DNA of 29,853 nt from a virus. The number at the start of each line of letters is the position of its first letter. Within the stretch, counting starts at the first letter, position 1. Where the stretch lies: IMG/VR virus record IMGVR_UViG_3300048033_000253, positions 1 to 29,853 of that record, one strand, 5' to 3'. A model generated the notes under the pieces. That model saw only the letters and a list, made by a program, of their open reading frames with translations. It was not told where the DNA came from and made no database searches. Both the position numbers and the translations under genes were made by a program. Below are positions 13,333 to 27,212 of this stretch, piece by piece.

Positions 13333-13360
13333 TTGACAGATTGGAAAACCTGTATATAAT
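13333..13360 (+). promoter_or_regulatory. Consensus sigma70-type promoter, antisense to the early operon
   Basis: TTGACA at 13333-13338, a 16-nt spacer and TATAAT at 13355-13360, both perfect matches. Predicted start is about 13367. It reads rightward, against the leftward early genes, so it would make RNA antisense to genes at 13397-14770. The -10 region shares TGTATATAATA with the promoter at 27136-27164. Confidence 0.72.
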
Positions 13361-13364
13361 AGGG

Positions 13365-13382
13365 CTTGTCCCTGACAAGGGA
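13365..13382. promoter_or_regulatory. Hairpin at the predicted 5' end of the antisense transcript
   Basis: Two alternative small stems: TCCCT(GACA)AGGGA at 13369-13382, or CTTGTC(CCT)GACAAG at 13365-13379. The first begins two bases after the predicted start of the promoter at 13333-13360. No T run follows on either strand, so it does not look like a terminator. Confidence 0.45.
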
Positions 13383-13396
13383 GATATAGGTAATAC

Positions 13397-13567
13397 CTAG
13401 GTGATAGACCCTGAGGACTTTATATCTTTTATAAGATAATCAGTATCCCTTAGGTCTTGCTCTCTAAGTTCTTCTTCATCTAGTAGCTTCTCATATTCTT
13501 CTACTTCCTTAATAGTTTTCCTATGGAAGGAGTGAAAGTTTAAGGAGCTCTTGTTCTCTATCACCAT
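13397..13567 (-). CDS. Small charged helical hypothetical protein
   Basis: 56 residues from the ATG at 13567, which overlaps the upstream stop by 7 nt; a GTG at 13600 is less likely. The sequence is highly charged (TIKEVEEYEKLLDEEELREQDLRDTDYL) and predicted helical, possibly a short coiled coil. The ribosome site is weak (GAGAG). No family recognised. The gene lies downstream of, and antisense to, the promoter at 13333-13360. Moderate confidence that it is real, based on packing. Confidence 0.6.
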   Translation of the reverse strand: MVIENKSSLNFHSFHRKTIKEVEEYEKLLDEEELREQDLRDTDYLIKDIKSSGSIT

Positions 13568-13773
13568 TTCTTTTCTCTCACTTTCCAGTAGACCCAACAC
13601 TCAGAGCAATGCTGAGGGCCTAATAGTTTGTCAATCAAGAAGGTCAGGTTAGGTTTTCCTTCCTTCTTCCATGCGTGATTCCTTGCGCTGAAGGTTTGAT
13701 TACTAGGGCCCCCAAGTATTACATTAGCTAGGACACTCAGGGCTAACCCTACTCTTGTCAAGTATTCTGTCAT
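13561..13773 (-). CDS. Conserved phage hypothetical protein with hydrophobic N-terminus
   Basis: 70 residues from the ATG at 13773 (AAGGGG about 5 nt upstream), starting MTEYLTRVGLALSVLANVIL. The block VGLALSVLANVILGGPSNQTFSARN, then KEGK.N.T.LIDKLLG..HC..CWVYW, matches a small conserved protein I recall from many phages, function unknown. The N-terminus is hydrophobic enough for one membrane helix, and the C-terminal HCSECW pair could bind metal. Upstream it is 8 nt from the end of the HTH gene; downstream it overlaps the charged small protein. Confidence 0.78.
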   Translation of the reverse strand: MTEYLTRVGLALSVLANVILGGPSNQTFSARNHAWKKEGKPNLTFLIDKLLGPQHCSECWVYWKVREKKW

Positions 13774-13780
13774 ATCCCCT

Positions 13781-13984
13781 TCAGCTTTCCAGAGTATAGC
13801 GCACATAGCGCTGGCCTGTCACTGGGTGACGCTTAGGCACTGACACAATGTCATGGCCTTGTTCACGTAGCTCTTGGATACGTTTGGTCAGGCTGCTTAT
13901 GCTATACTCAACCAAAGCTTCTCGCACAGTGAGGCCTTTGGTTTGCTTGAGGTGCTTAAGAATCTTCTCGTGTTGCGTTTTCAT
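13781..13984 (-). CDS. Helix-turn-helix DNA-binding protein
   Basis: 67 residues from the ATG at 13984 with AAGGA 8 nt upstream. A winged-helix-type reading head is clear: HEKILKHLKQTKGLTVREALVEYSI as the first helices, SSLTKRIQELREQGHDI as the recognition helix, then a beta wing (VSVPKRHPVTGQRYVRYTL). It fits the small phage HTH family (PF14090-like). As the third gene of the early arm it is the best candidate in this window for a transcription regulator acting on the control region at 14771-15918, though this is inference from position and fold. Confidence 0.85.
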   Translation of the reverse strand: MKTQHEKILKHLKQTKGLTVREALVEYSISSLTKRIQELREQGHDIVSVPKRHPVTGQRYVRYTLES

Positions 13985-13988
13985 GGTC

Positions 13989-14162
13989 TTATCCTTCCAT
14001 CTCATATTGTGTTTTTACTTGTTCAACCTGCTCATGTGTCAGGTACATAGCTATCTCTTCAGCTAATGCTAATGCTCTGTCTGAGCTTTCATCATCAGGT
14101 GCATTGATAGCTAAGTCAACAGCTAATGCAAAGGCTGTCACGGGGTCTTGTATCTGTGTCAT
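13989..14162 (-). CDS. Small acidic hypothetical protein
   Basis: 57 residues from the ATG at 14162, starting MTQIQDPVTAFALAVDLAIN. The pattern QDP.TA.ALA..LA..AP, then ALALAEEIA..LT..EVEQVK, resembles a short alanine-rich protein common in phages, known only as hypothetical. AAAGGA lies about 11 nt upstream. It is predicted all-helical, soluble and acidic. It starts 17 nt after the stop of the first early gene and ends 4 nt before the HTH protein start. Confidence 0.72.
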   Translation of the reverse strand: MTQIQDPVTAFALAVDLAINAPDDESSDRALALAEEIAMYLTHEQVEQVKTQYEMEG

Positions 14163-14179
14163 TGATGTCTTTTCCTTTA

Positions 14180-14770
14180 TCAAATGTTATGGATACGCTT
14201 CCACGTTGTCCACGTGATTGCTTGAAGTACGTGAGGCTTTACGCCTACTCGCTTAGCTGCCTTGACGTAAGCCTCTTGAAGCTCACGATACTCACGCTTG
14301 CCCATGTTAGTCTTGTCGCTTGTCAAGCCCTCACGTTTACCTCGTGCAATGTTCAAAGCATGACCATCTATTGTCACCTCGTCAAGCCCACGAATGTTAG
14401 AGTAAAACGATCTGATCTTCTGGCCGTTAAGGTGCGACAGAATGTCCTCGTCGTCTGTCAAACCTAGGTCAAGTATAGTCCAAGCCTTCTGTTTCATTGT
14501 GTTATAGCAGGATACCTTGAAACTATCCATGCTCTCACCTGCAACCCAAGCCTGACACATAGTCGCAGCATCCTTGCAGTTGCGTTCCCATCGGTTATTA
14601 GGTGACAGTGCGGCCATGACACCAATCACAGTAGGTAGTGGCAAGCCAGCGTCCTTAGCTATAGCCTTAGCCATGCGTTCTGCTCTTGCATACCATTCGA
14701 CACCATTAACAGTATCTTCCTGAGTAGCTTGGCGATATAGTTTAAGAATGTTGCGAACGTGATTAGTCAT
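14180..14770 (-). CDS. Phage protein of DUF7178-like type, possibly HhH-GPD glycosylase-like
   Basis: 196 residues; first gene of the early arm, with AGGAAAG 4-5 nt before the ATG. I know the pattern (GVMAALSPNNRWERN..DA, then KAWTIL, HLNGQKIRSFYSNI, VTIDGHALNIARG) as an uncharacterised phage family, probably DUF7178. The segment ILSHLNGQKIRSFYSNI followed by EVTIDGHAL (Asp135, His137) has the order of the helix-hairpin-helix and catalytic Asp regions (L.G.G.kt.a...vD.H) of HhH-GPD DNA glycosylases. If so, it would act on DNA bases. This is a motif-level inference. The C-terminus is basic (KRVGVKPHVLQAITWTTWKRIHN). Confidence 0.78.
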   Translation of the reverse strand: MTNHVRNILKLYRQATQEDTVNGVEWYARAERMAKAIAKDAGLPLPTVIGVMAALSPNNRWERNCKDAATMCQAWVAGESMDSFKVSCYNTMKQKAWTILDLGLTDDEDILSHLNGQKIRSFYSNIRGLDEVTIDGHALNIARGKREGLTSDKTNMGKREYRELQEAYVKAAKRVGVKPHVLQAITWTTWKRIHNI

Positions 14771-15067
14771 AATCTTTCCTCTCTCTTTTAAAGCTTAAAC
14801 GTCCGAACCTCTCAGGCGCTTAAGGCTTTGCTCTATTATCGGGTGTAACCCTAAGAGCAAGAGTAATGCTAACAATGTCAAACAGCGTGTGAGACCTTGG
14901 TTTGCCTTGTGTCTCGGTTAGTGTAGTCAGGTTAGTCTTAGTCAGTTTGGGTTGTCAATCCCTGTTTTAGTCTCTTTCACCCTCTTGCTTGCTAGGTGCT
15001 GCACGGTAGCGCAGGTTGACACAGTGACGTTGGTATCTCGTATGTGTCTGTGTTTGCTTGCCGATGT

Positions 15068-15086
15068 ACACAAGGTGACACAAGGT
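15068..15086. repeat. Two direct 9-bp repeats ACACAAGGT, period 10 bp
   Basis: ACACAAGGT occurs at 15068-15076 and 15078-15086, exactly one helical turn apart. Function unknown; could be a protein-binding pair. Confidence 0.6.
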
Positions 15087-15143
15087 TTCTCATATGTCAA
15101 CAGTTATTTTCTAATCTTTATTTTACCTAGAGAAGCTATCCTG

Positions 15144-15157
15144 TTTGTGATCACAAA
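15144..15157. promoter_or_regulatory. Perfect 14-bp palindrome, candidate operator
   Basis: TTTGTGATCACAAA is its own reverse complement. Its TGTGA/TCACA halves are those of CRP/FNR-family sites but without the usual 6-bp spacer, so CRP itself is not expected. It lies in the early leader 374 bp upstream of the first early gene. A homodimeric HTH protein could bind here. Confidence 0.5.
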
Positions 15158-15189
15158 AGGAACCTATAGGGCATTCTATAAGGAACCTA
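15157..15189. repeat. Two direct copies of AAGGAACCTA
   Basis: Copies at 15157-15166 and 15180-15189, separated by 13 bp (period 23 bp). The first copy touches the palindrome at 15144-15157. Role unknown. Confidence 0.5.
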
Positions 15190-15316
15190 AGTAAGGTTAA
15201 GGTTAATACTTTATAGGGTGTCAGTAGAACGTGAGTGATTCCATTGGGTTAGAGGCTCAGGGATTAACCTGTGTGTATTTCCGAAAGTATACCTCAAGAC
15301 CCCTAACCCCTAGTGC

Positions 15317-15366
15317 AACACACATGAACACACATGAACACACATGAACACACATGAATACACATT
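15317..15366. repeat. Tandem 10-bp repeat, four perfect units plus one degenerate
   Basis: The unit AACACACATG occurs at 15317-15326, 15327-15336, 15337-15346 and 15347-15356; AATACACATT (15357-15366) is a decayed fifth copy. The 10-bp period places every copy on the same face of the DNA helix, as for iterons or cooperative operators. The reverse-strand open frame across it is a translation of the repeat, not a gene. Confidence 0.85.
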
Positions 15367-15393
15367 AGCATTCCCTGCACAGGAAAAGGGGGA

Positions 15394-15409
15394 CTAGGGT
15401 TTTCCCTAG
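15394..15409. repeat. Inverted repeat CTAGGG-TTTT-CCCTAG
   Basis: A 6-bp perfect stem with a 4-nt loop, flanked by G-rich sequence. No T run follows, so it is not a clear terminator. Confidence 0.45.
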
Positions 15410-15420
15410 GTGTAGACTTT

Positions 15421-15440
15421 AGGGGGTGCAAGGGGGTGCA
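15421..15440. repeat. Tandem pair AGGGGGTGCA
   Basis: Two perfect adjacent 10-bp units (15421-15430, 15431-15440). It is the third element in this region with a 10-bp period and is strongly G-rich on the + strand. Confidence 0.7.
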
Positions 15441-15513
15441 CGGGTATCCTTCTATATGTACAATGCACCAAAAGATTTTCTCATAGTTTTTCCTACCATG
15501 TAAAAACAGAAGA

Positions 15514-15544
15514 AGCTCCCTATGGTATTTAACCAAGGGGAGCT
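15514..15544 (-). terminator. Hairpin terminator in the leader of the early transcript
   Basis: AGCTCCC (15514-15520) pairs with GGGAGCT (15538-15544), and inside it TGGT pairs with ACCA, giving a long stem with one small internal loop. Read leftward the stem is followed by TCTTCTGTTTTTA, the T-rich side, so it should act on leftward transcription. It lies about 210 nt after the predicted start of the leftward promoter (15788-15760) and 740 bp before the first early gene, so it would attenuate early expression or define a short RNA. Confidence 0.65.
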
Positions 15545-15553
15545 CCAGTGTGT

Positions 15554-15661
15554 AGATTCTAATGTTTACTCTAGTGTAATGACAAAAAGGAGGAGGAGTA
15601 CTTAAGTTAGATTCTGATGTTTACTTAAGTAGTCCCTACAGATTCTGATGTTTACTTAAGT
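15554..15661. repeat. Three copies of a 22-bp repeat containing ACTTAAGT palindromes
   Basis: Copies AGATTCTGATGTTTACTTAA(GT) at 15609-15630 and 15640-15661 are identical; 15554-15575 is a diverged copy. An 8-bp palindrome ACTTAAGT ends the two good copies (15623-15630, 15654-15661) and occurs once more at 15600-15607. Spacings are 55 and 31 bp. The repeats lie within the transcribed leader of the leftward promoter. They look like iterons or operator sites. Confidence 0.8.
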
Positions 15662-15734
15662 ACTACTTCTCCTACTAAGATGTTATACTCAGACAAGGTG
15701 AGGATATACCTTAGTATAGGGTATATACTATATA

Positions 15735-15752
15735 TCACCCCTGACGGGCTGA
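15735..15752. promoter_or_regulatory. Hairpin at the predicted 5' end of the early (leftward) transcript
   Basis: On the leftward strand TCAGCCC-GTCA-GGGGTGA folds with one G-G mismatch around a GTCA loop. It begins one base after the start predicted from the -10 element at 15765-15760. It is likely a 5' stability structure, by analogy with 5' hairpins of other phage messages. Confidence 0.45.
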
Positions 15753-15759
15753 CACTGTA

Positions 15760-15788
15760 AGTGTACCAATTCTTTGTCCTCCTGTCAA
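15760..15788 (-). promoter_or_regulatory. Leftward sigma70-type promoter for the early arm
   Basis: On the reverse strand TTGACA (15788-15783), a 17-nt spacer, and TACACT (15765-15760). The -35 is perfect, the -10 matches 4 of 6, and the spacing is ideal. Predicted start is about 15753. It diverges from the rightward promoter, with the two -35 elements 45 bp apart. Confidence 0.65.
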
Positions 15789-15833
15789 GAACAAAATAAC
15801 ATCTTCTCATAAAAAAAATAATAAACTTTTGTG

Positions 15834-15862
15834 TTGACAACTAGGAATCCTTCTGTTATACT
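15834..15862 (+). promoter_or_regulatory. Rightward sigma70-type promoter for the late arm
   Basis: TTGACA (15834-15839), a 17-nt spacer and TATACT (15857-15862), with an extended -10 TG one base before it (TGTTATACT). Predicted start is about 15869, 50 nt before the terminase small subunit ATG. Confidence 0.8.
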
Positions 15863-15870
15863 TCCATTCA

Positions 15871-15895
15871 AATACTTCGAGTAGCTCCTAGTATT
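15871..15895. promoter_or_regulatory. Hairpin at the predicted 5' end of the late transcript
   Basis: AATACT (15871-15876) pairs with AGTATT (15890-15895); GAG/CTC inside the loop can add a short inner stem. It starts two bases after the predicted start of the promoter at 15834-15862. Confidence 0.45.
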
Positions 15896-15918
15896 CCCTA
15901 AAAGGTCGCATATAAACC

Positions 15919-16449
15919 ATGATGTACACCTACGAGCAGCTAAAGGCTGTAACTGGTAAACCCCGCACGAAAAGTTTGTTCTACGAGCTCAGCTACGTTG
16001 ATCCTTCCAATGCTCTCTTCACACTGAAGGAACGAGACATTGAGGCTCACGGTAGACACTATGTCTCCCTTAGAAATCTTTTCGTAGCTATGGTCCCTAA
16101 TGACCCAACTGAGTATGAGTTCGCACAGACAGTCTTCGGTTCATGGGAGAACTGGGAGGCTATCTGTAAGTCACCCTTCGTCAAGCCTCACATCCAGAAG
16201 TGGCGTAATGAGGTTGAGGTTAAGATTAAGTCTCAGGCTATCCAAGCTATCGCTGAGGAAATGAAGTCAAACGGACGTTCCTCCTTTAGTGCAGCTAAGC
16301 TTCTCCTTGATAAAGGTTGGCTAGATAAAGACTCAGCTGCACAAGCTAACAAGAAGTTAAAAGCTAAAGAAGAAGAAGAACAGAATAAAGAAGCTCTGTC
16401 AATCTTGTCAGAAGATGCAGAACGTCTTGGCTTGAACAAACTAAACTAA
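15919..16449 (+). CDS. Terminase small subunit
   Basis: 176 residues (the second codon is also ATG). The N-terminus (YTYEQLKAVTGKPRTKSLFYEL), the GRHYVSLRNLF segment, DPTEYEFAQTVFGSWENWE, and a helical C-terminus ending in a highly charged coiled coil (KKLKAKEEEEQNKEALSIL) match the layout I recall for small terminases of marine T7-like and SIO1-like podoviruses. Small terminases bind the packaging site and hand DNA to the large subunit. It is the first late gene, 57 nt after the predicted +1 hairpin region begins. The large subunit is unusually distant (21647), with tail fibre genes in between. Family assignment is moderately confident. Confidence 0.8.
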   Translation: MMYTYEQLKAVTGKPRTKSLFYELSYVDPSNALFTLKERDIEAHGRHYVSLRNLFVAMVPNDPTEYEFAQTVFGSWENWEAICKSPFVKPHIQKWRNEVEVKIKSQAIQAIAEEMKSNGRSSFSAAKLLLDKGWLDKDSAAQANKKLKAKEEEEQNKEALSILSEDAERLGLNKLN

Positions 16450-16506
16450 TTGTATCCACCTCTCAGCCTAGTGCTGTTGAATACGGAAGGTAAAGGATAA
16501 AACACC

Positions 16507-18537
16507 ATGGTAAAAAGACCAGACATTACAACTATTGCTTCAGGCTACTACAGTCGTCAGGCACTTAACACTAACTTTGAGAACCTACAAGCAGGGTTCG
16601 ATAATACTTTGTCATTGGACGGTAGCACACCTAATGCTATGGGTGCTGACCTTGACATGAACTCCAATGACATCTTGAATGCTAGTCTTGTAGACACAGA
16701 TGCACTTAAGATCAATGGTACACTTGTTGGTGTAGGCTATCTTAGTGCAGCTGGTGCAACTCTGTCATCCATCTCTCACATAGGTAACGGTAGCACAGTA
16801 GCATTCTCTACAGGCTACCAAGCATTCATTACAGACAACACACAAGTTTATATTGATGGTGTGTACCAGAACAAAGCTGGATACAGCATCTCAGGGACTA
16901 CCCTGACGTTCTCTGAGGCTCCTCCTCTTAATGCTGACATTGAGATTGTTGTAGCTCGTACCTTGGACTTTGGTGCTGATGATGCAGCTAACGTAAACTA
17001 CAACCAAGGTGGTTCAGGTTCTGTCAATCGTACAGTGCTTACGAAGCTGCAAGAGTTTGTATCGGTCAAAGACTTCGGTGCTGTCGGTGATGGCGTGACG
17101 GATGACACTGCGGCTATTCAGGCTGCGATTGATGCTGTTGCAAATGTTGATGGTGATTTGGAGGCGGCTGGTGTTTATTTGCCGATTGGCACATATCGTG
17201 TGACTGCACAGATCAATGTAACTGGGGCAAAATTATTTGGTGAAGGCATAAAATCAGTCATCCTTCAAGATGGTGACTTCACTGTTCTTTTTTCAGACGA
17301 AACTTGTCACTTGGAAGGTTTCATTCTTAACGGGCAATGGAATGGAACTGATCCAGCAACAGGCAATCCAACTATTCTACACAAAAAGGGAACAGGCACT
17401 TATGGTGCTTGGACGGGGCAGGTTCATTACAAAGATGTTTTTGTAAAAAATTCAAGAGACACTGGTATTAGTGTAAATGGATGCGGCTATTCAACTCTTT
17501 ACAACGTTACAGTAAGGGGTGCAGCCGCAAATGGTCTTGATCTCATAGGAGATCAGGCAACTCTTGCTGCAATTACATCAACAACAATTTATAATTTTAA
17601 TGGGGGATCGATTGGTGGATACGCAATCAACCTTCGTGATGGATTTGCTATCAACTTCAATGGCTGCGTTTGGGAATTGTGTGACGGTGTAAACATCACT
17701 GGAAGCAGTAACAGGTCCATTTCTTTTACTGGATGTTATTCTGAAGCTATTTCAAGTGGGAACATGCCAATTAACTTCACCAGTGCTGGTGGTTTAGGCT
17801 TGCATGTTACTGGGTGTTATCTGGCATCGGCTCCATCTGGAACAACTCAATCATTTGATGGGACTGGTTTCAGAAGGATTTTTGTCGCTTCATCAACTGG
17901 TGAAAACGGTGGTCGTTATGATGATGACAACCCGTTTGTATTTAATCGTGCATCAAGCAATGGCTCCATTATTGAAGTCGAACGCAATGAAGTGAAGCAG
18001 TTTGATATTCGTGCAGAAAGTGGTGTCAGCACTCTTCAAACGTATCCTACAAACTCGCAATGGCGTATCAGGTTTAAAGATAGTGCAGACGTTGATCGTG
18101 GTATTGAACTTGTTGAGGATACTGGGGTTCCAGTGCTGCGCCCTGCACAAGACAACATTATGGACTTGGGTGCTGCCGCCAGACGTTTTGACGACATCTA
18201 CGCAACAAACGCAACAATCCAAACATCTGACAAAAATGACAAGCAAGATGTAGCTGTTTTGTCTGATGCAGAACAACGTGTTGCTTCGGCTTGCAAGGGC
18301 CTGCTGCGTAAATTTCGGTGGAAAGATGCTGTAGTTGAAAAGGGTGATAAAGCCCGTATTCACTTTGGTGTTATTGCACAGGACTTACAATCTGCATTTG
18401 AGGCTGAAGGATTAAATGCCGAAGAGTATGGATTGTTTATCTCTAACACTTGGATTGATGAAGAAACTAATGAAGAGCATACCCGCATGGGGGTCAGATA
18501 CTCCGAATTGCTCACCTTCATTATTGCAACTATGTGA
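16507..18537 (+). CDS. Tail fibre/tailspike with pectate-lyase-like beta-helix and S74 chaperone domain
   Basis: 676 residues in three parts. Residues 1 to about 185 are the likely virion-attachment region; its ITDNTQVYIDGVYQNKAGYSISG segment is typical of T7-type fibre N-termini. From about 188, VSVKDFGAVGDGVTDDTAAI opens a right-handed beta-helix of the pectate lyase 3 type, which usually binds or cuts surface polysaccharide. The last 104 residues are a peptidase S74 intramolecular chaperone: TSDKNDKQDV gives the Ser574/Lys579 dyad for self-cleavage after trimer folding, and HFGVIAQDL and RYSELLTFIIA follow as in the family. Nucleotide style changes near 17060, suggesting a swapped receptor-binding part. 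Confidence 0.9.
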   Translation: MVKRPDITTIASGYYSRQALNTNFENLQAGFDNTLSLDGSTPNAMGADLDMNSNDILNASLVDTDALKINGTLVGVGYLSAAGATLSSISHIGNGSTVAFSTGYQAFITDNTQVYIDGVYQNKAGYSISGTTLTFSEAPPLNADIEIVVARTLDFGADDAANVNYNQGGSGSVNRTVLTKLQEFVSVKDFGAVGDGVTDDTAAIQAAIDAVANVDGDLEAAGVYLPIGTYRVTAQINVTGAKLFGEGIKSVILQDGDFTVLFSDETCHLEGFILNGQWNGTDPATGNPTILHKKGTGTYGAWTGQVHYKDVFVKNSRDTGISVNGCGYSTLYNVTVRGAAANGLDLIGDQATLAAITSTTIYNFNGGSIGGYAINLRDGFAINFNGCVWELCDGVNITGSSNRSISFTGCYSEAISSGNMPINFTSAGGLGLHVTGCYLASAPSGTTQSFDGTGFRRIFVASSTGENGGRYDDDNPFVFNRASSNGSIIEVERNEVKQFDIRAESGVSTLQTYPTNSQWRIRFKDSADVDRGIELVEDTGVPVLRPAQDNIMDLGAAARRFDDIYATNATIQTSDKNDKQDVAVLSDAEQRVASACKGLLRKFRWKDAVVEKGDKARIHFGVIAQDLQSAFEAEGLNAEEYGLFISNTWIDEETNEEHTRMGVRYSELLTFIIATM

Positions 18538-18546
18538 GGAAATAAC

Positions 18547-19404
18547 ATGACAATTAAGCAGCAAGGCGGCATCTTTGGAAGAAACCCAACATTCAACAAT
18601 GTTGAAGTTGATGGAACTTTGACCGCAAACTCAGTTTCCACGAGCCAGTTTGATACGTCCATTGATGTTAATGGCAGTGTCACCAGCAACGGCTTTATTG
18701 TAGACACAGCATCTACAGCAAATCTTGCCACATATACTTACACAAGTGTTGATCGTTCGAAGATTGAAGGTCAACAGGTAGGTGGTGCTGGTGGCAAACT
18801 TGATTTCAAAACCAATGATGGTGGAGGTTTAAAGTCACGGGTTAATATCGATCATGTTGGTGACGTTGTTTTTTACAAAACTGACGGAACCACTGCTGGC
18901 ATGACTTACGATGCGTCTGCGTTTTCTTTGGCATTTGCATCTGGTGGTGGCATCGACTTCTCTGCCACCTCTGGCACTGGCACAAGCGAACTGTTCGATG
19001 ACTATGAAGAGGGGACGTGGACGCCGAGTGTAATCGGTGCAACCAGCGGGTCTATGTCTTTTGGTAGTGTGGCAATTGCCAGATACACTAAGGTTGGCAG
19101 GATCGTTTCAATTAACCTTTACATGACTGGCGGTGATTTTGCGGCACACACGGTTTCAGGAAATGTGCTGATCCAAGGTCTGCCATATGCTGCATCATCT
19201 GTTGGCGCTGGTGTAATTTCTGTGGCGTATTGCAACCTGACAACGGCAGACGAAGCTGACATTACCCTTTCAGGATATGTTGAAGCAACATCCCTTCGTC
19301 TTTTGAAGGGCAGTTCTACCTCGGCAGTAACTGGTGCTGACTTGGCTTCATCTGGAACAAACGGGGCAATCATGCTCAGCATCGTATATGAAACGGGGGC
19401 GTAA
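18547..19404 (+). CDS. Tail fibre-associated protein
   Basis: 285 residues. It begins MTIKQQGGIFGRNPTFNNVEVDGTLTANS, a repeat-like beta pattern found near the bases of phage fibres, and contains LFDDYEEGTWTPSVIGATSG (about residues 150-170), the 'DYEEGTWTP' motif that marks many tail fibre and receptor-binding proteins. The C-terminal part (about 155-285) is a predicted all-beta domain that could bind a receptor. The stop is followed at once by the ATG of the next tailspike gene, and it starts 9 nt after the S74 fibre stop, so the three form one cassette. Exact role unknown. Confidence 0.8.
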   Translation: MTIKQQGGIFGRNPTFNNVEVDGTLTANSVSTSQFDTSIDVNGSVTSNGFIVDTASTANLATYTYTSVDRSKIEGQQVGGAGGKLDFKTNDGGGLKSRVNIDHVGDVVFYKTDGTTAGMTYDASAFSLAFASGGGIDFSATSGTGTSELFDDYEEGTWTPSVIGATSGSMSFGSVAIARYTKVGRIVSINLYMTGGDFAAHTVSGNVLIQGLPYAASSVGAGVISVAYCNLTTADEADITLSGYVEATSLRLLKGSSTSAVTGADLASSGTNGAIMLSIVYETGA

Positions 19405-21000: not shown

Positions 21001-21049
21001 TGCGCTCTGAGCGTGGACAGGTCCAACAGGACGATAAAAGGAGGCCATC

Positions 21050-21310
21050 ATGGCACTGACTAAGACAACGACCAACGACAAGATCGAGGTTCTGCAACTG
21101 GCTGCGGGTTATCCCGTCATTCAGGTTCGCACAGCCACCATCATTGCAGAGGATGGCGTTGAGTTATCACGCAACTTCCACCGCCGTGTGGTTACACTGG
21201 GTGATGACTTCCTTGCAGAGCCAGACGCAGATGTGCTGGCAATCATTCAGGCTACATTTACTGCTGAAGCACAAGCTGCTTATGCTGCTGCTCAAGTTGA
21301 GGGAGAGTAA
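21050..21310 (+). CDS. Conserved small phage protein, probably virion-associated
   Basis: 86 residues with a strong AAAGGAGG ribosome site. The sequence MALTKTTTNDKIEVLQL..., VIQVRTATIIAEDGVELSRNFHRRV and EPDADVLAIIQATFT resembles a short protein common in marine cyanophages and podoviruses, usually next to tail or head genes; function unknown. It shares the MALTK start with the tailspike upstream. The first two-thirds follow the nucleotide style of the tail fibre cassette, while the last third (GCTGAAGCACAAGCTGCTTA onward) resembles the backbone late genes, so the cassette border may fall inside it. Confidence 0.75.
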   Translation: MALTKTTTNDKIEVLQLAAGYPVIQVRTATIIAEDGVELSRNFHRRVVTLGDDFLAEPDADVLAIIQATFTAEAQAAYAAAQVEGE

Positions 21311-21312
21311 CA

Positions 21313-21609
21313 ATGGCTAACGTAACAGCTTCCCTTACAGATAACGGCAGCACAGATGCCCTACAGATCATCGGTCACTTCAACTTGTCAATCTCAGGTA
21401 CATGGGCTGCTACAGTCACTGTAGAACGTAGCTGGGATAAGACTAACTGGTTTGCTGTAGACACCTTCACAGGCAACTACGAGGGTGTAGGCTTCGATGC
21501 TGAAGAAGTCTACTACCGTGCAACTGTCTCAGGATATTCTTCTGGTACTGTAGCACTACGTATCTCAGATAACCGTGACTTCGGTGCTAAGGACGTATTC
21601 GTACAATAA
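21313..21609 (+). CDS. Small all-beta protein, possibly a virion component
   Basis: 98 residues: alternating strand pattern throughout (ANVTASLTDNGSTDALQIIGHFNLSISG, then WAATVTVERSWDKTNWFAVDTFTGNYEG and YYRATVSGYSSGTVALRI). It looks like a single beta-sandwich domain such as a decoration or tail-associated domain. I do not recognise a family. The codon style is again that of the late backbone. It starts 2 nt after the previous stop. A probable promoter lies just downstream, before the large terminase. Confidence 0.72.
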   Translation: MANVTASLTDNGSTDALQIIGHFNLSISGTWAATVTVERSWDKTNWFAVDTFTGNYEGVGFDAEEVYYRATVSGYSSGTVALRISDNRDFGAKDVFVQ

Positions 21610-21618
21610 AAAAAATAC

Positions 21619-21648
21619 TTGACAAAGTAAATTTAACCGTGGTACAAT
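21619..21648 (+). promoter_or_regulatory. Possible sigma70-type promoter overlapping the large terminase start
   Basis: TTGACA (21619-21624), an 18-nt spacer and TACAAT (21643-21648). The -10 overlaps the terminase ATG at 21647, so its predicted transcript (about 21655) would begin inside the gene. No +1 hairpin is present, unlike the four other promoters. It may be inactive, or the terminase may use a later start. Confidence 0.45.
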
Positions 21649-23182
21649 GGCAACATTAGAACAAATAAGACTTGCAGCTGAAGCTGACTTGGTGACATTC
21701 ATTAAGCTTGTAGCACCTGAGCAAGTCTTGGGTCAATGCCATGAAGACGTATGTGACTGGTGGAGTCGTCCAGATGCTAAGTCTCACCAGCTTCTCCTAT
21801 TCCCACGTGACCATGGTAAGTCTCGTCTAGTAGCTTACAGGGTTGCGTGGGAACTAACCAAAGACCCAACACTGCGGATATTATATATCTCAGCCACCGC
21901 AAACCTTGCGGAGAAACAACTAGGTTTTGTCAAGAGCATTCTTACCTCTGAGACTTTCTCAAGGTATTGGCCTGACCACGTGAACCCAGACGAAGGTAAG
22001 CGTACTAAGTGGACCAACTCAGAGATCATGCTGGATCACCCAGCACGTAAACGTGAGAAGATTAGAGACCCCTCAGTATTCACAGGCGGCTTAACGACAT
22101 CCCTTACAGGTCTCCACTGTGACATAGCTGTACTCGACGATATCGTAGTTTACGAGAATGCTTACACAAGTGAAGGTCGTAACAAGGTTAAGTCTCAGTA
22201 CTCCCTTCTGTCATCTATCGAAGGTGCTGAAGCTAAAGAGTGGGTCGTAGGTACACGTTACCATCCAGCTGACCTTTACAATGATCTTCTTCAAATGACA
22301 GAAGACTTGTTTGATGATGATGGAAATAAAGTAGGTGAAGAGAACATCTACGAAATCTTTGAACGCCCAGTAGAAGACCGAGGTGATGGCACAGGCCAGA
22401 TGCTTTGGCCACGAGCTCAACGTAAGGATGGTAAGTGGTTCGGGTTTGACATCAAGGTTCTCGCCAAGAAACGTGGTCAGTACCTAGACAAGGGTCAGTT
22501 CCGAGCACAGTACTACAATGATCCTTCTGATCCTGACAACGTACCTGTAGGTTCAGAAAAGTTTCAGTACTACGAGCAGAAGCTTCTTCGTCAGGAGAAC
22601 GGCTACTGGTTCTACAAAGATAGAAAACTAAACGTCTTCGCAGCTGTTGACTTTGCTTTCAGTCTCTCAAAGAAAGCTGACTATACAGCTATTGTTGTCA
22701 TAGGGATTGACTACGACAATAACGTGTACGTCTTAGACATCGACAGGTTCCGCACAGATCGTATCTCTGACTACTTTGATCACATCTTTCATCTTGTCAA
22801 CAAGTGGTCTTTCCGTAAGATGCGAGCTGAAACAACAGTAGCTCAGGTGGCTATCGTTAAGCAGCTTAAGGAACTTGTGAAGCAGCACGGGCTCTCACTT
22901 AGTATTGAAGAGTACCGTCCAAACAAAACTCAAGGTAACAAGCAGGAGCGTATAGCTTCAACTTTGGAACCTCGTTATGACAACATGAGTATGTGGCACT
23001 ACCGAGGTGGTAATACACAGATACTTGAAGAAGAGTTGTCATCTCGTAACCCAGCACATGATGACGTTATTGACGCATTAGCTTCTGTAGTTGACATGGC
23101 TATCAAACCCTCTCGTACAATTAAAAGACAAAACACCCAGAACATTGTATGGGCTAACAACAGATTTAGAGGAGCCTCTTAA
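21647..23182 (+). CDS. Terminase large subunit
   Basis: 511 residues. It is the ATP-driven motor and nuclease that packages DNA through the portal. The ATPase has a Walker A-like LLFPRDHGKSR (50-60, Lys58), the ILYISATANLAEKQ coupling region, and Walker B CDIAVLDD (158-165). The RNase H-like nuclease has FAAVDFAFS (Asp335), ADYTAIV (Asp345) and, near the C-terminus, HDDVIDALAS (471-480). Length is normal for podovirus terminases. No ribosome site precedes the ATG at 21647, where AAAAAAATAC and a possible promoter lie instead. The stop overlaps the portal start as TAATG. Confidence 0.94.
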   Translation: MATLEQIRLAAEADLVTFIKLVAPEQVLGQCHEDVCDWWSRPDAKSHQLLLFPRDHGKSRLVAYRVAWELTKDPTLRILYISATANLAEKQLGFVKSILTSETFSRYWPDHVNPDEGKRTKWTNSEIMLDHPARKREKIRDPSVFTGGLTTSLTGLHCDIAVLDDIVVYENAYTSEGRNKVKSQYSLLSSIEGAEAKEWVVGTRYHPADLYNDLLQMTEDLFDDDGNKVGEENIYEIFERPVEDRGDGTGQMLWPRAQRKDGKWFGFDIKVLAKKRGQYLDKGQFRAQYYNDPSDPDNVPVGSEKFQYYEQKLLRQENGYWFYKDRKLNVFAAVDFAFSLSKKADYTAIVVIGIDYDNNVYVLDIDRFRTDRISDYFDHIFHLVNKWSFRKMRAETTVAQVAIVKQLKELVKQHGLSLSIEEYRPNKTQGNKQERIASTLEPRYDNMSMWHYRGGNTQILEEELSSRNPAHDDVIDALASVVDMAIKPSRTIKRQNTQNIVWANNRFRGAS

Positions 23183-24927
23183 TGGCTGGCGAAACTATCG
23201 AAATTGATAGCCTTCTTGATGTAGACCACATGGCAGTTGAGATTGCCAACAGGTTTCAAGAGTGGTCCATGTTCCGTAACAAGAAGATTGAGGAGTGGAA
23301 AGAGCTCCGTAACTATCTGTACGCAACGGACACAAGCACCACTAAGAACGCAATGCTTCCTTGGTCTAACAGTACGACCACACCAAAGCTGACACAGATC
23401 ATGGATAACCTCCATGCGAATTACTTTGCTACTCTGTTTCCGCAACAGAACTGGATGCGTTTCGAAGCTGACAACGCAGACTCAAACCTTAAAGCTAAGC
23501 GTGATGTAATCCAAAGTTACATGAACAACAAGCTTCGTAAGTCAGGTTTTGTCAATACAGCTTCTGATCTTCTTTATGATTATATCCAGTATGGTAACTG
23601 CTTTGCTACAGTTACTTGGGAAGACAGCTACACCACCAAAGAATCAGGTGAGTTTATTGTCAACTACGTAGGTCCACGTGTAGTACGTATCTCTCCTTAT
23701 GACATCTGCTTTAACCCTACAGCCTCAAGCTTTGAGAAGTCCCCTAAGATTATCAAGTCAGTGATGACACTCGGAGAAATCCGTAAGATGATCAAGGATG
23801 ATCCTTCCAAGGAATACATGGAGGGTGTCTTCAATAAGATGGTTGAAGCCAGAGGTAAAGTACGTGGTTCAAACGCTACGTTCACTAAGGGTGAAGGCTT
23901 TACAGCTGATGGTTTCAGTGACATCCAGAACTACTACGAGTCTGACTATGTAGAAATCCTTACGTTCTACGGGGACTACTATGACACAGCCAACGATAAG
24001 CTTTGGTCAGATCGTGTCATCACTGTAGTTGATCGTGCTTACGTACTGGCCAATGAAGAGAACGCAAGCTGGCTTGGTCATGCTCCTATCTATCACGCAG
24101 GCTGGCGTCCTCGCCCTGACAACCTCTATGCTATGGGCCCACTTGATAACCTCGTAGGTATGCAGTATCGCATTGACCACTTGGAGAACTTGAAGGCTGA
24201 CGTATTCGATCAGATTGCGTACCCTATGCTTAAAATCCGTGGGGATGTTGAGGACTTCGACTTCCAGCCTGCTGGCCGTATTTACCTAGGTGAAGAGGGT
24301 GACGTAGGTTACATGGCTCCTGATGCCACAGCCTTGCAAGCAGACCTGCAAATTAGGCTGCTGGAGGACAAGATGGAGGAGATGGCTGGTGCACCTAAGC
24401 AAGCCATGGGTATCCGCACTGCTGGCGAGAAGACAGCCTTTGAGGTACAATCCCTCCAGAATGCTGCCTCACGTATCTTCGAACACAAGACTGCACACTT
24501 CGAACGGACATTCCTTGAGCCAATCCTGAATGCAATGCTTGAGGTAGCTCGTCGTAACATGAGTAACTCAGATACAATTCGAGTTGTCAATGAGCAGGAT
24601 GGTCTTATTCTTTTCCAGTCAATCACAAAGAATGACCTTGTAGCTGACGGTAAGATTGTTCCTGTGGGTGCTCGTCACTTTGCTGAACGTGCTCGTCGTG
24701 TTCAGAACCTTACACAGCTTTACCAGATCAAGCTTGCTGATCCTTCAGTCGCTACTCATCTTTCAGGTAAAGAGTTCGCACGTATTCTTGCAGATGAACT
24801 AGGTGAACCAACTCTTTTCTCTGACAACGTAGCAGTAGGTGAGCAGCTGGAAACCCAAATGCAGATGCAGGAAGCAGAAGCTGTCAACCAAGATCGCCTC
24901 ATGGCGGCACAACAAGCAGGACTTTAA
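23182..24927 (+). CDS. Portal (head-tail connector) protein
   Basis: 581 residues. The protein forms the ring at the capsid vertex through which DNA passes. The N-terminal region (FQEWSMFRNKKIEEWKELRNYLYATDT), the NLHANYFATLFPQQNWMRFEADN segment, the central WLGHAPIYHAGWRPRPDNLYAMGPLDNLVGMQYRIDHLEN block and the C-terminal helical crown (AVGEQLETQMQMQEAEAVNQD) are typical of marine podovirus portals of this length. It follows the large terminase with a TAATG overlap and precedes the scaffold and capsid genes, the expected order. Confidence 0.9.
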   Translation: MAGETIEIDSLLDVDHMAVEIANRFQEWSMFRNKKIEEWKELRNYLYATDTSTTKNAMLPWSNSTTTPKLTQIMDNLHANYFATLFPQQNWMRFEADNADSNLKAKRDVIQSYMNNKLRKSGFVNTASDLLYDYIQYGNCFATVTWEDSYTTKESGEFIVNYVGPRVVRISPYDICFNPTASSFEKSPKIIKSVMTLGEIRKMIKDDPSKEYMEGVFNKMVEARGKVRGSNATFTKGEGFTADGFSDIQNYYESDYVEILTFYGDYYDTANDKLWSDRVITVVDRAYVLANEENASWLGHAPIYHAGWRPRPDNLYAMGPLDNLVGMQYRIDHLENLKADVFDQIAYPMLKIRGDVEDFDFQPAGRIYLGEEGDVGYMAPDATALQADLQIRLLEDKMEEMAGAPKQAMGIRTAGEKTAFEVQSLQNAASRIFEHKTAHFERTFLEPILNAMLEVARRNMSNSDTIRVVNEQDGLILFQSITKNDLVADGKIVPVGARHFAERARRVQNLTQLYQIKLADPSVATHLSGKEFARILADELGEPTLFSDNVAVGEQLETQMQMQEAEAVNQDRLMAAQQAGL

Positions 24928-24929
24928 CT

Positions 24930-25067
24930 ATGCTAGCACCTAAGAAATCTCTTCGCCCTAAAGCTCGCCCAAAGAATTTGGCAGCTAAGGGTGCAGTAGC
25001 TCGTGGCAACAAAGCCTCAAAGTACAACGCACAAGACATGATGCTTGTCAAGAAGAAAAAGAAATAA
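24930..25067 (+). CDS. 45-residue lysine-rich protein (short gene)
   Basis: The frame reads MLAPKKSLRPKARPKNLAAK... ending QDMMLVKKKKK, then TAA. About one-third of residues are Lys or Arg. It begins 2 nt after the portal stop and its stop overlaps the next ATG as TAATG, the same junction used elsewhere in this arm, so it is very probably translated. The charge suggests nucleic-acid binding or an internal head protein; that is inference. No family recognised. Confidence 0.82.
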   Translation: MLAPKKSLRPKARPKNLAAKGAVARGNKASKYNAQDMMLVKKKKK

Positions 25068-25309
25068 TGAGGGCTGTCTGGTTTAAAAAGTGTAAGACCG
25101 AAGAAGAGAAGAAGTCTCAGAGACAAACTCTTCTGCAACACAGGTATACACTGGAGACCCTTCAAGAAATCCTTGAGTCTATGCTTGAGGTAAACCCCCC
25201 TTCTACTGATTATGATAACCCTTCTTGGGCTTATAAGCAGGCAGATAGGAATGGCTATAACCGAGCACTAACCAAGGTGCTTGAAATCATCAACTTAGAC
25301 AAGGAATAA
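25067..25309 (+). CDS. Small hypothetical protein
   Basis: 80 residues: MRAVWFKKCKTEEEKKSQRQTLL, then a helix (TLETLQEILESMLEVN) and DNPSWAYKQADRNGYNRALTKVLEIINL. Predicted helical with a basic N-terminus. It resembles small proteins found between portal and scaffold in related phages, function unknown. TAATG overlap upstream and a 3-nt gap to the scaffold gene. Confidence 0.72.
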   Translation: MRAVWFKKCKTEEEKKSQRQTLLQHRYTLETLQEILESMLEVNPPSTDYDNPSWAYKQADRNGYNRALTKVLEIINLDKE

Positions 25310-25312
25310 CAC

Positions 25313-26089
25313 ATGGTATTCACTGACGGAACTGCAACCACACAGACCGATCAGAACGCAGAGCAGACACAAGCTGAGACCCCACCACAGGAATCATACT
25401 TGAAGAAGCTCGTAGAGGCAAAGGGAGAGAACTGGGGAGACCCTGAGGTTCTAGCTAAAGGAAAGCTTGAAGCTGACGGATACATTCAGACTCTGGAGCA
25501 ACAACTTACGCAAATGCGTGAAGACCTCCAGAAGCAAGACTACGCTTCTCAACTTCTCGAACAACTGAAGAACAAGGCCGCAGAGCCCACCGCTGCACAA
25601 ACTTCAGCGCCCAAAGAAAATAATATTGGTGGCACTACAGAAGGGAACACCAACCCTGCTCTGAGTGAGGAAGACCTGAAGAGCCTCGTTGAAAAGACAC
25701 TTAGTGAACGTGACAAGGATACACTGGTAAAGCAGAACCTTACTTACGTTGACCAAGAACTTGAGAAAGCTTTCGGCACAGATGCTGAAGGTGTTGTCAA
25801 GAAGAAAGCTGAAGAGCTTGGTTTGTCAATGGACCGTATGAAGGAAATTGCAACTGAGTCACCTAATGCTTTTCTTACTCTTGTAGGTGAGAAACCAAAA
25901 CAAGCCTTCAACCCAATGGTTCAAGGTTCGGTTCGCACCGAGGGTGTCAATATGCAAGCCTCGACAGAACGCAACTGGTCATACTACCAGAAGCTACGTC
26001 GAGAGAACAGACACGAATATTATTCCCCACGAGTCCAACAACAGCTTATCCAAGATAAGATGCGGATGGGTGATAAGTTCGGTAACTAA
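25313..26089 (+). CDS. Scaffolding protein
   Basis: 258 residues, acidic, Gln/Glu/Lys-rich and mostly helical. A disordered N-terminus (TATTQTDQNAEQTQAETPPQ) is followed by coiled-coil stretches (YIQTLEQQLTQMREDLQKQD; DLKSLVEKTLSERDKDTL) and a basic C-terminus (YYQKLRRENRHEYYSPRVQQQ), which in podovirus scaffolds contacts the coat protein. Position between portal and capsid genes is diagnostic. Scaffold proteins direct procapsid assembly and leave before or during packaging. AAGGAATAACAC precedes the ATG. Confidence 0.88.
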   Translation: MVFTDGTATTQTDQNAEQTQAETPPQESYLKKLVEAKGENWGDPEVLAKGKLEADGYIQTLEQQLTQMREDLQKQDYASQLLEQLKNKAAEPTAAQTSAPKENNIGGTTEGNTNPALSEEDLKSLVEKTLSERDKDTLVKQNLTYVDQELEKAFGTDAEGVVKKKAEELGLSMDRMKEIATESPNAFLTLVGEKPKQAFNPMVQGSVRTEGVNMQASTERNWSYYQKLRRENRHEYYSPRVQQQLIQDKMRMGDKFGN

Positions 26090-26119
26090 AACTTCTCTTA
26101 ACAAAAAAGGACTAGCAAA

Positions 26120-27094
26120 ATGGCTGGTATGATTTCGTCCAATGCGGACATGCAACGTCTAATCCGTTCAGAGGTATACTCCTCAGAGCTTAAAGAAATC
26201 CTCCGTGATGAGATGCAAGCACAACGCTACGTGCGTATGCTGGATGGTTTCCCAGATGGTGACACATTCACAATCCCAACAATCGGTGAAACAACTGTAG
26301 CTGACTACACAGAAGATGCAGCTGTTGCTTACACACCAATGGATACAGCTGAGTTCTCATTCACTGTAGACAAGTACCTCCAGTCAGCTTCTTACATCAC
26401 TAAGAAAGCTGCTCAGGACTCATTCTACAGCGCACAACTCGAAGCTCGTTTCGTTCCTGAGCAAGAGCGTGCAATCCTTGAGCACTTCGAAGCAACCACA
26501 TTTGCTTCACCTGAAGTTGGTGTCACAGCTAACTCAGCTGAAACACTTGACGGTGTTGCACACCGCTTCTCAGGTGGTAACGCTGGTCGTCTTGAGCTTG
26601 CTGACTTTGCATTCGCACGTTATGCCCTCAAGAAGTCAAACGTACCTGACCGTGGTCTCGTAGCTGTTGTTGACCCATCAGTAGAATACCAACTGAACAC
26701 ACTGACAAACCTTGTCAACGTGTCGAACAACCCAATGTGGGAAGGTATTGTACGTGACGGTATCGCAACTGGTATGCGCTTCGTAGCTAACGTATACGGC
26801 TTCGACGTTTATACTTCTAACTACCTCAAAGCTGACGTTGCTGATGCAGCCCTGCTTGAAAAAGATGGTTCAACAGGCAACGACTTCTCAGTCAACGCTG
26901 GTGTTGCTAACCTCTTCTTCTCAGCTGACACAACTGCCAACCCCTTCGTTGGTGCATGGCGTCAAATGCCTGAGGTTGACTACGAGTACAACAAAGACCG
27001 TCAGCGTCACGAGTATGTTACTACTGCTCGTTACGGTGTCAAGAAGTACCGTCCAGAAGGTATTGTCACAGTCGTGTCAAACCCTGCTGTATAA
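26120..27094 (+). CDS. Major capsid protein
   Basis: 324 residues with a good AAAAGGAC ribosome site. It follows the scaffold gene and is closed by a strong terminator, as expected for the most abundant late product. Residues 1-45 are a helical arm (DMQRLIRSEVYSSELKEILRDE); TFTIPTIGETTVADYTEDA and the FTVDKYLQSASYITKKAAQDSF segment resemble the E-loop and spine of HK97-fold capsids in this phage group; LVAVVDPSVEYQLNTL follows in the P-domain. Codon use is strongly biased to a few codons, consistent with high expression. The HK97 fold is inferred from phage type. Confidence 0.9.
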   Translation: MAGMISSNADMQRLIRSEVYSSELKEILRDEMQAQRYVRMLDGFPDGDTFTIPTIGETTVADYTEDAAVAYTPMDTAEFSFTVDKYLQSASYITKKAAQDSFYSAQLEARFVPEQERAILEHFEATTFASPEVGVTANSAETLDGVAHRFSGGNAGRLELADFAFARYALKKSNVPDRGLVAVVDPSVEYQLNTLTNLVNVSNNPMWEGIVRDGIATGMRFVANVYGFDVYTSNYLKADVADAALLEKDGSTGNDFSVNAGVANLFFSADTTANPFVGAWRQMPEVDYEYNKDRQRHEYVTTARYGVKKYRPEGIVTVVSNPAV

Positions 27095-27101
27095 AAACAT
27101 T

Positions 27102-27131
27102 GGGAGCTCCTTCGGGGGCTCCCTCCATTTT
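27102..27131 (+). terminator. Rho-independent terminator after the capsid gene
   Basis: GGGAGCTCC (27102-27110) pairs with GGGGCTCCC-type sequence (27115-27123) around a TTCG tetraloop (27111-27114), with one G-T pair; TCCATTTTCT follows. UUCG-loop stems are unusually stable. Located 8 nt after the capsid stop. Confidence 0.88.
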
Positions 27132-27135
27132 CTTA

Positions 27136-27164
27136 TTGACAGAATAGTCAGAAGTGTATATAAT
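27136..27164 (+). promoter_or_regulatory. Consensus sigma70-type promoter for the tail genes
   Basis: TTGACA (27136-27141), a 17-nt spacer and TATAAT (27159-27164), a perfect match in both boxes and spacing. Predicted start is about 27171. It starts a new transcript directly after the capsid terminator. Confidence 0.85.
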
Positions 27165-27170
27165 AAATTT

Positions 27171-27184
27171 ACCCTTGGTAGGGT
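27171..27184. promoter_or_regulatory. Hairpin at the predicted 5' end of the tail transcript
   Basis: ACCCT (27171-27175), loop TGGT, AGGGT (27180-27184). It begins exactly at the start predicted from the promoter at 27136-27164. Confidence 0.5.
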
Positions 27185-27212
27185 CGATAGTATATACCCC
27201 TAGGAGAGCTTC

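What the first reader, a model, noticed from the sequence alone, without database searches (positions are those of the whole stretch)
13333..27184. Four sigma70-like promoters each carry a small hairpin starting at the predicted +1
The promoters at 13333-13360 (+), 15788-15760 (-), 15834-15862 (+) and 27136-27164 (+) are near-consensus. In all four a short stem-loop begins 0-2 nt from the start predicted 7 nt after the -10 box: 13369-13382, 15752-15735, 15871-15895, 27171-27184. The fifth candidate, at 21619-21648, has no such hairpin and overlaps a start codon. A shared 5' cap-like structure suggests a phage-wide rule for mRNA stability or for marking phage messages. I have not seen it described for this group.
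Basis: partly seen in the sequence, partly recalled or inferred. Interest (0 to 1): 0.6.

Follow-up and report, generated by a model that had tools for sequence, protein, structure and literature searches.

The report
Phage transcripts starting with a hairpin
In a group of marine phages, RNAs from some strong promoters are predicted to begin, at their very first base, with a small hairpin that relatives keep in changed sequence, probably as a shield against the host's RNA-degrading enzymes; the idea is known from E. coli mRNAs, but its recurrence in one phage lineage seems undescribed.

Summary
The window is a Veravirus-like cobavirus (Zobellviridae, Cobavirinae; phages of marine Rhodobacteraceae). 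All four promoters exist, but only three carry a convincing hairpin.

P_early (15788, -) has the strongest: its 24-mer from +1 is more stable than all but 0.05% of window 24-mers. P_as (13333, +, antisense to early genes) ranks at 1%. P_mcp (27136, +) ranks at 5% and starts exactly on the predicted +1. P_late (15834) is ordinary (49%).

In relatives, the folding signal peaks at the predicted +1 for P_early and P_mcp and is flat for P_late. Independent P_early sequence clusters with a +1 hairpin number 10 of 18, against 0 of 37 for P_late. Stems change on both sides yet stay paired (ATCCC/GGGAT, ATCCG/CGGAT, ATCCA/TGGAT, CGCT/AGCG, ATCGG/CCGAT).

Hairpins of two promoters in one genome are no more alike than across genomes. 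That argues for structure rather than a shared operator or boxB-like site.

It is not a phage-wide rule: the late promoter, siovirus promoters and distant Zobellviridae lack it.

Best explanation: a 5'-terminal stem-loop that denies RppH, RNase E and RNase J a single-stranded 5' end (ompA/papA principle). Start sites and RNA stability are untested.

The parts
13333..13360 (+). P_as: 12/12 sigma70-like promoter (TTGACA-16-TATAAT) in the gap between two minus-strand early genes, reading antisense to the early operon
   Evidence: same site in ICBM2 (L104 2672 -) and L100-L103
13365..13382 (+). P_as start-region inverted repeats: CTTGTC-CCT-GACAAG (13365-13379) and the overlapping TCCCT-GACA-AGGGA (13369-13382)
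   Evidence: relatives found with a pairing-blind pattern have either CTTGTC/GACAAG or CTGCG/CGCAG
15760..15788 (-). P_early: sigma70-like promoter (TTGACA-17-TACACT, TG before the -10) for the early operon
   Evidence: conserved in L083-L099 and L150-L229
15732..15755 (-). P_early +1 hairpin GTGTCA.CCC-GTCA-GGG.TGATAT; predicted +1 is G at 15753
15834..15862 (+). P_late: 11/12 sigma70-like promoter for the tail/late operon; no conserved +1 hairpin (15871-15895 judged chance)
27102..27123 (+). Intrinsic-terminator-like hairpin after the major capsid gene, just upstream of P_mcp
27136..27164 (+). P_mcp: 12/12 sigma70-like promoter (TTGACA-17-TATAAT) between the capsid gene and the next structural gene
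   Evidence: conserved in many of L003-L082
27171..27184 (+). P_mcp +1 hairpin ACCCT-TGGT-AGGGT, starting on the predicted +1 (A27171); the next start codon is 27213
27188..27198 (+). TAGTATATACC element just downstream of the P_mcp hairpin; the only other copy in the window (15730-15720, minus) is just downstream of the P_early hairpin

Best explanation
P_early, P_mcp and probably P_as are host-sigma70-type promoters placed so that the transcript begins at, or within a base or two of, the 5' foot of a short stem-loop. The RNA therefore has little or no single-stranded 5' end. The host pyrophosphohydrolase RppH, the 5' sensor of RNase E and 5'-3' RNase J all need one, so early-gene and post-capsid transcripts should last longer in infected Rhodobacteraceae cells. 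Shown here by sequence: the promoters, the stems, their register, and their maintenance through sequence change. Inferred: the start sites, folding in the cell, and protection from decay.
For: Register: mean folding energy of 18-nt windows is lowest at offset 6 after the -10 for P_early (-4.04; 6 = canonical +1) and at offset 5 for P_mcp (-2.67), and near -0.1 for P_late around +1. The usual start is a pyrimidine followed by the first stem purine. Conservation: 10 of 18 P_early clusters are in the most stable 10% of their own locus (binomial p 2e-6), 3 of 9 for P_mcp, 0 of 37 for P_late. With one filter, 15/33 early, 9/22 mcp, 0/51 late and 10.8% of random positions have a +1 hairpin. Two-sided changes: 22 distinct stems, all four inner pairs vary on both sides, 13 further pair types (arms chosen by folding). 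P_as relatives retrieved without regard to pairing keep the stem with three pairs changed on both sides. RNA rather than DNA: sense folding beats antisense in 11 P_early clusters against 3. Sequence-independent: early and mcp hairpins of one genome are no more alike than across genomes, 8.27 against 8.33 of 18. 5'-end sequestration: unpaired probability of nt 1-4 is 0.42 for early, 0.66 for controls, 0.79 for late (early p 6e-6). [quoted passage not shown] Rhodobacter has RNase E and RNase J (PMC6238624).
Against: No start site is mapped. Relatives are not independent, so p-values are optimistic. P_mcp is weak overall: sequestration p 0.21, mean shuffle z 0.16, no sense bias (4 against 3), and a conserved sequence core CCTTGGCAGGG. 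A test that swapped right halves between relatives separated own from swapped arms only slightly, because left arms are C-rich and right arms G-rich. One P_early clade (L208, L213, L216, L221, L222, L224) lacks the +1 hairpin and instead has an inverted repeat beginning right after the -10, which would not be transcribed whole. P_late, which also makes long transcripts, does without.
Confidence: 0.5

Rival explanations
1. DNA operator: the inverted repeats at +1 bind a phage repressor or activator (for example the winged-HTH protein at 13781-14005) that times these promoters.
For: Dyads over +1 are classic operators. CCCTNNNNAGGG occurs only twice in the window, at P_as and P_mcp, against 0.34 expected. 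An HTH_39 protein is encoded nearby. One clade has its dyad at -6 to +7. TTGGCA-like cores recur.
Against: Hairpins of two promoters in one genome are no more alike than across genomes. Stems differ outright inside a genome, e.g. G041 TATCGCT/AGCGGTA against ACCC/GGGT. Sense-strand folding is favoured at P_early.
Confidence: 0.2
2. Antitermination leader: the nascent 5' hairpin, as an HK022 put-like or boxB-like element, makes RNA polymerase pass terminators.
For: The lineage lacks its own RNA polymerase (PMC6775973) and P_early leaders often have two or more stem-loops in about 90 nt. P_late, without the hairpin, runs into the capsid terminator.
Against: put is about 70 nt with two stem-loops (PMC9378689), but the P_mcp start codon lies only 42 nt from +1. 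Loops differ between promoters and relatives, unlike a protein-read boxB.
Confidence: 0.1
3. GC-rich initial transcribed sequence with incidental hairpins: selection acts on promoter escape or an initiator sequence, and C-runs followed by G-runs pair by accident.
For: Dinucleotide shuffles of the same 24 nt fold nearly as well for P_mcp (z 0.16) and only moderately worse for P_early (z -0.99). The half-swap test is weak. Siovirus promoters share an unstructured start sequence.
Against: Compensatory stems that are not C-run/G-run (CGCT/AGCG, ATCGG/CCGAT, GTCT/AGAC, CTTGTC/GACAAG to CTGCG/CGCAG) and the sharp register on +1.
Confidence: 0.17

Closest known systems
5'-terminal mRNA-stabilising stem-loops of E. 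coli (ompA, papA; Emory, Bouvet and Belasco 1992; Bricker and Belasco 1999)
   Same: Stem-loop at the extreme 5' end of the transcript; what matters is pairing of the end, not its sequence.
   Different: Known cases are single cellular genes with measured half-lives. Here it recurs at two or three promoters across a phage lineage, is only predicted, and the foot coincides with the predicted +1.
HK022 putL/putR nascent-RNA antiterminators
   Same: Structured RNA soon after strong early phage promoters.
   Different: put is about 70 nt with two stem-loops; the P_mcp leader is 42 nt with one 14-nt hairpin.
Lambda nut boxB
   Same: Small hairpin in early phage RNA.
   Different: boxB has a conserved, protein-read loop (general knowledge); these loops vary within and between genomes, and they sit at +1.
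N4 virion RNA polymerase hairpin promoters
   Same: A short hairpin next to a start site in a podovirus.
   Different: N4 hairpins lie upstream of the start and are read as DNA by a virion polymerase (general knowledge). Here a sigma70 promoter is present, the hairpin is downstream, and cobaviruses are reported to lack an RNA polymerase.

Membership tests
5'-terminal mRNA-stabilising stem-loop (ompA/papA type) | Stem begins within a few nucleotides of the RNA 5' end | tested here: inconclusive
   Met for predicted starts (register; 27171 exactly +1); no mapped start exists
5'-terminal mRNA-stabilising stem-loop (ompA/papA type) | Pairing kept while sequence changes | tested here: met
   for P_early and P_as; weaker for P_mcp; stems unlike within a genome
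5'-terminal mRNA-stabilising stem-loop (ompA/papA type) | Prolongs mRNA half-life | not testable with these tools
   Needs an experiment
HK022 put element | About 70 nt with two stem-loops | tested here: not met
   P_mcp leader 27171-27212 is 42 nt with one hairpin; P_early leaders vary in architecture
Lambda nut boxB | Conserved loop sequence across sites of one phage | tested here: not met
   Window loops GTCA, TGGT and GACA or CCT; loops vary in relatives
Operator dyad of one phage regulator | Sites in one genome share a recognised sequence | tested here: not met
   Same-genome similarity 8.27 against cross-genome 8.33; the window alone is suggestive
N4 vRNAP hairpin promoter | Hairpin upstream of the start and a virion RNA polymerase gene | tested here: not met
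   Hairpins lie downstream of the -10; absence of an RNA polymerase is stated for SIO1 in PMC6775973 and no RNA polymerase is annotated in ICBM2
Intrinsic terminator | GC-rich stem followed by a T-run in the direction of transcription | tested here: not met
   No T-run after the P_as, P_early or P_mcp hairpins in the sense direction (27171-27184 is flagged only on the opposite strand)

The most novel reading that the evidence does not exclude
A phage lineage uses a promoter-coded structural cap: a class of its promoters fixes transcription initiation on the foot of a sequence-free hairpin, so that early and post-capsid messages (but not late tail messages) are hidden from host 5'-end-dependent RNA decay, giving expression control by message lifetime rather than promoter strength.
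Probability: 0.3. Interest if true: 0.6.

Novelty: new variant of a known kind. Interest (0 to 1): 0.42.

Why it matters
Phages that rely on host RNA polymerase must also survive host RNA decay. If confirmed, this is a simple way to do so, built into the promoter, kept over strong sequence divergence and used selectively by gene class. It gives directly testable pairs (P_early or P_mcp with, P_late without) in cultured phages such as ICBM2 and CRP-5, and a ready set of natural 5' stabilisers for alphaproteobacteria.

Tried and rejected
Half-swap test for covariation was hardly discriminating (10.7 against 9.7 for P_early), because any C-rich left arm pairs with any G-rich right arm. Dinucleotide shuffles of 24 nt are too harsh for P_mcp (z 0.16) since they keep CC and GG, so I used own-locus random positions and P_late as controls. 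MAFFT alignments of start regions do not line up the arms and were not used for counts; the pair count uses arms picked by folding and so leans towards pairing. Rfam: no match. The 15871-15895 hairpin was rejected as chance. A divergent -10 in the TAGTATATACC element was considered; no -35 was visible by eye. Literature: the cobavirus paper mentions neither promoters nor hairpins; searches for phage 5'-terminal hairpins found no described case, but the library is only partial.

Full report
What the window is. It is a virus record of 29,853 bases. Its genes match Lentibacter phage vB_LenP_ICBM2 and Roseobacter phages CRP-4 and CRP-5 (major capsid protein 96, 92 and 90% identical), that is, Veravirus and near relatives in Zobellviridae, Cobavirinae. 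In window coordinates early genes run leftwards from about 15.7 kb and late genes rightwards from 15.9 kb, with the genome-end region between them. Cobaviruses are reported to have no RNA polymerase of their own (PMC6775973), so host sigma70-type promoters are expected.

The promoters are real. The two perfect 12/12 promoters (13333, 27136) are the only exact matches in the record. In 50 related contigs the promoter pattern is found many times, against one match for its reversed form. P_early (15788, minus) and P_late (15834, plus) are divergent and conserved in position in about 110 related loci. P_mcp (27136) follows a terminator after the capsid gene and recurs in many relatives; a sister lineage has a terminator-like hairpin there but no promoter. 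P_as (13333) reads antisense to the early genes and is conserved in ICBM2 and other contigs.

The hairpins. Measured from +1 (7th base after the -10), the 24-mer of P_early is more stable than all but 0.05% of window 24-mers, P_as 1%, P_mcp 5%, P_late 49%. In relatives the folding energy of 18-nt windows is lowest exactly at the predicted +1 for P_early, one base before it for P_mcp, and is flat for P_late. Grouping start regions into sequence clusters to reduce relatedness, 10 of 18 P_early clusters, 3 of 9 P_mcp clusters and 0 of 37 P_late clusters have a median stability in the top 10% of their own locus. With a single hairpin filter the counts are 15/33, 9/22 and 0/51, against 10.8% at random positions.

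Sequence changes, pairing stays. P_early stems include ATCCC/GGGAT, ATCCA/TGGAT, ATCCG/CGGAT, GTCC/GGAC, CGCT/AGCG, CCGC/GCGG and TGTC/GGCA; P_mcp stems include ACCCT/AGGGT, ATCGG/CCGAT and GTCT/AGAC. A pair count on 22 distinct stems shows all four inner pairs changing on both sides, with the caveat that arms were chosen by folding. The cleanest case is P_as: a pattern that leaves the stem bases free (TATAATAGGGCNNNNNCCTNNNNNGGG) retrieved 22 stretches; all but one are promoter-borne phage sites, and they carry only two stems, CTTGTC/GACAAG and CTGCG/CGCAG, three pairs apart on both sides. The one match without a -35 has no stem.

RNA or DNA. At P_early the sense strand folds better than the antisense strand in 11 clusters against 3, as expected if G-U pairs count. 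Early and mcp hairpins of one genome are no more alike than those of different genomes, which argues against one protein reading a common operator or loop. Against this, the window's P_as and P_mcp both contain CCCTNNNNAGGG, P_mcp has a conserved core CCTTGGCAGGG and no sense bias, and one P_early clade has its inverted repeat right after the -10, not at +1. A DNA-level role is therefore not excluded, above all at P_mcp and P_as.

Most likely function. [quoted passage not shown] Rhodobacter also has RNase J (PMC6238624). The predicted unpaired probability of nucleotides 1-4 is 0.42 at P_early, 0.66 at random Y|R starts and 0.79 at P_late; P_mcp (0.61) does not differ clearly from random. The best-supported reading is a 5'-terminal stabiliser at P_early, with weaker support at P_mcp and P_as. 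What is shown is a conserved, correctly placed, predicted RNA structure. What is inferred is the start site, folding in the cell and the effect on decay.

Limits of the rule. Siovirus cobaviruses (SIO1, ICBM1, P12053L) have perfect promoters whose shared start sequence AGTCTTAACAAGTCTCCCCTGC is unstructured. Strong intergenic promoters in six more distant cobavirus and Zobellviridae genomes show no comparable +1 hairpin (two of the six had no such promoter to test). P_late never has it. So it is a feature of certain promoters in the Veravirus-like lineage, not a phage-wide rule, and as a principle it is a variant of a known one.

Noticed in passing
window 21619-21653; L083, L104, L106, L110, L116, L118, L123-L127, L134, L146, L149: A conserved promoter-like TTGACA-N17/18-TANNATG whose -10 box contains the start codon of the terminase gene (MATLEQIR...), with no +1 hairpin. 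It would start RNA inside the gene and so boost portal, scaffold and capsid but not terminase.
   Followed up: partly
window 13333-13940 (+): P_as should make an RNA antisense to several early genes, possibly including the winged-HTH gene (HTH_39, 13781-14005); sequence just after it (ATAGGTAATACCTA) is also conserved.
   Followed up: partly
window 15720-15730 (-) and 27188-27198 (+): TAGTATATACC (with the palindrome GTATATAC) sits just after the P_early and P_mcp hairpins and nowhere else in the window; similar elements follow most P_early and P_mcp hairpins in relatives but few P_late starts.
   Followed up: partly
L208, L213, L216, L221, L222, L224 (P_early): A clade with an inverted repeat directly after the -10 (AGCT-TTGGC-AGCT, AACT-TTGGC-AGTT), upstream of the expected +1, so more like an operator.
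   Followed up: no
L104 40364 (+), ICBM2 P_early: Instead of a small hairpin the leader folds into one long stem of about 50 nt whose foot is again at the predicted +1.
   Followed up: no
L107 39888 and 29377; L108 38681 and 30175; L109 8612 and 37512 (all -): Siovirus late and post-capsid promoters share an identical 22-nt start sequence AGTCTTAACAAGTCTCCCCTGC.
   Followed up: no
L021-L031 and others, after the capsid gene: A sister lineage has the post-capsid terminator-like hairpin but no promoter; the next gene's ribosome site follows directly.
   Followed up: no
window 15318-15360 and 15551-15665: Short direct repeats (ACACATGAAC x4; TTCTAATGTTTACT / GATTCTGATGTTTACTTAAGTA x3) in the genome-end region next to P_early.
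   Followed up: no
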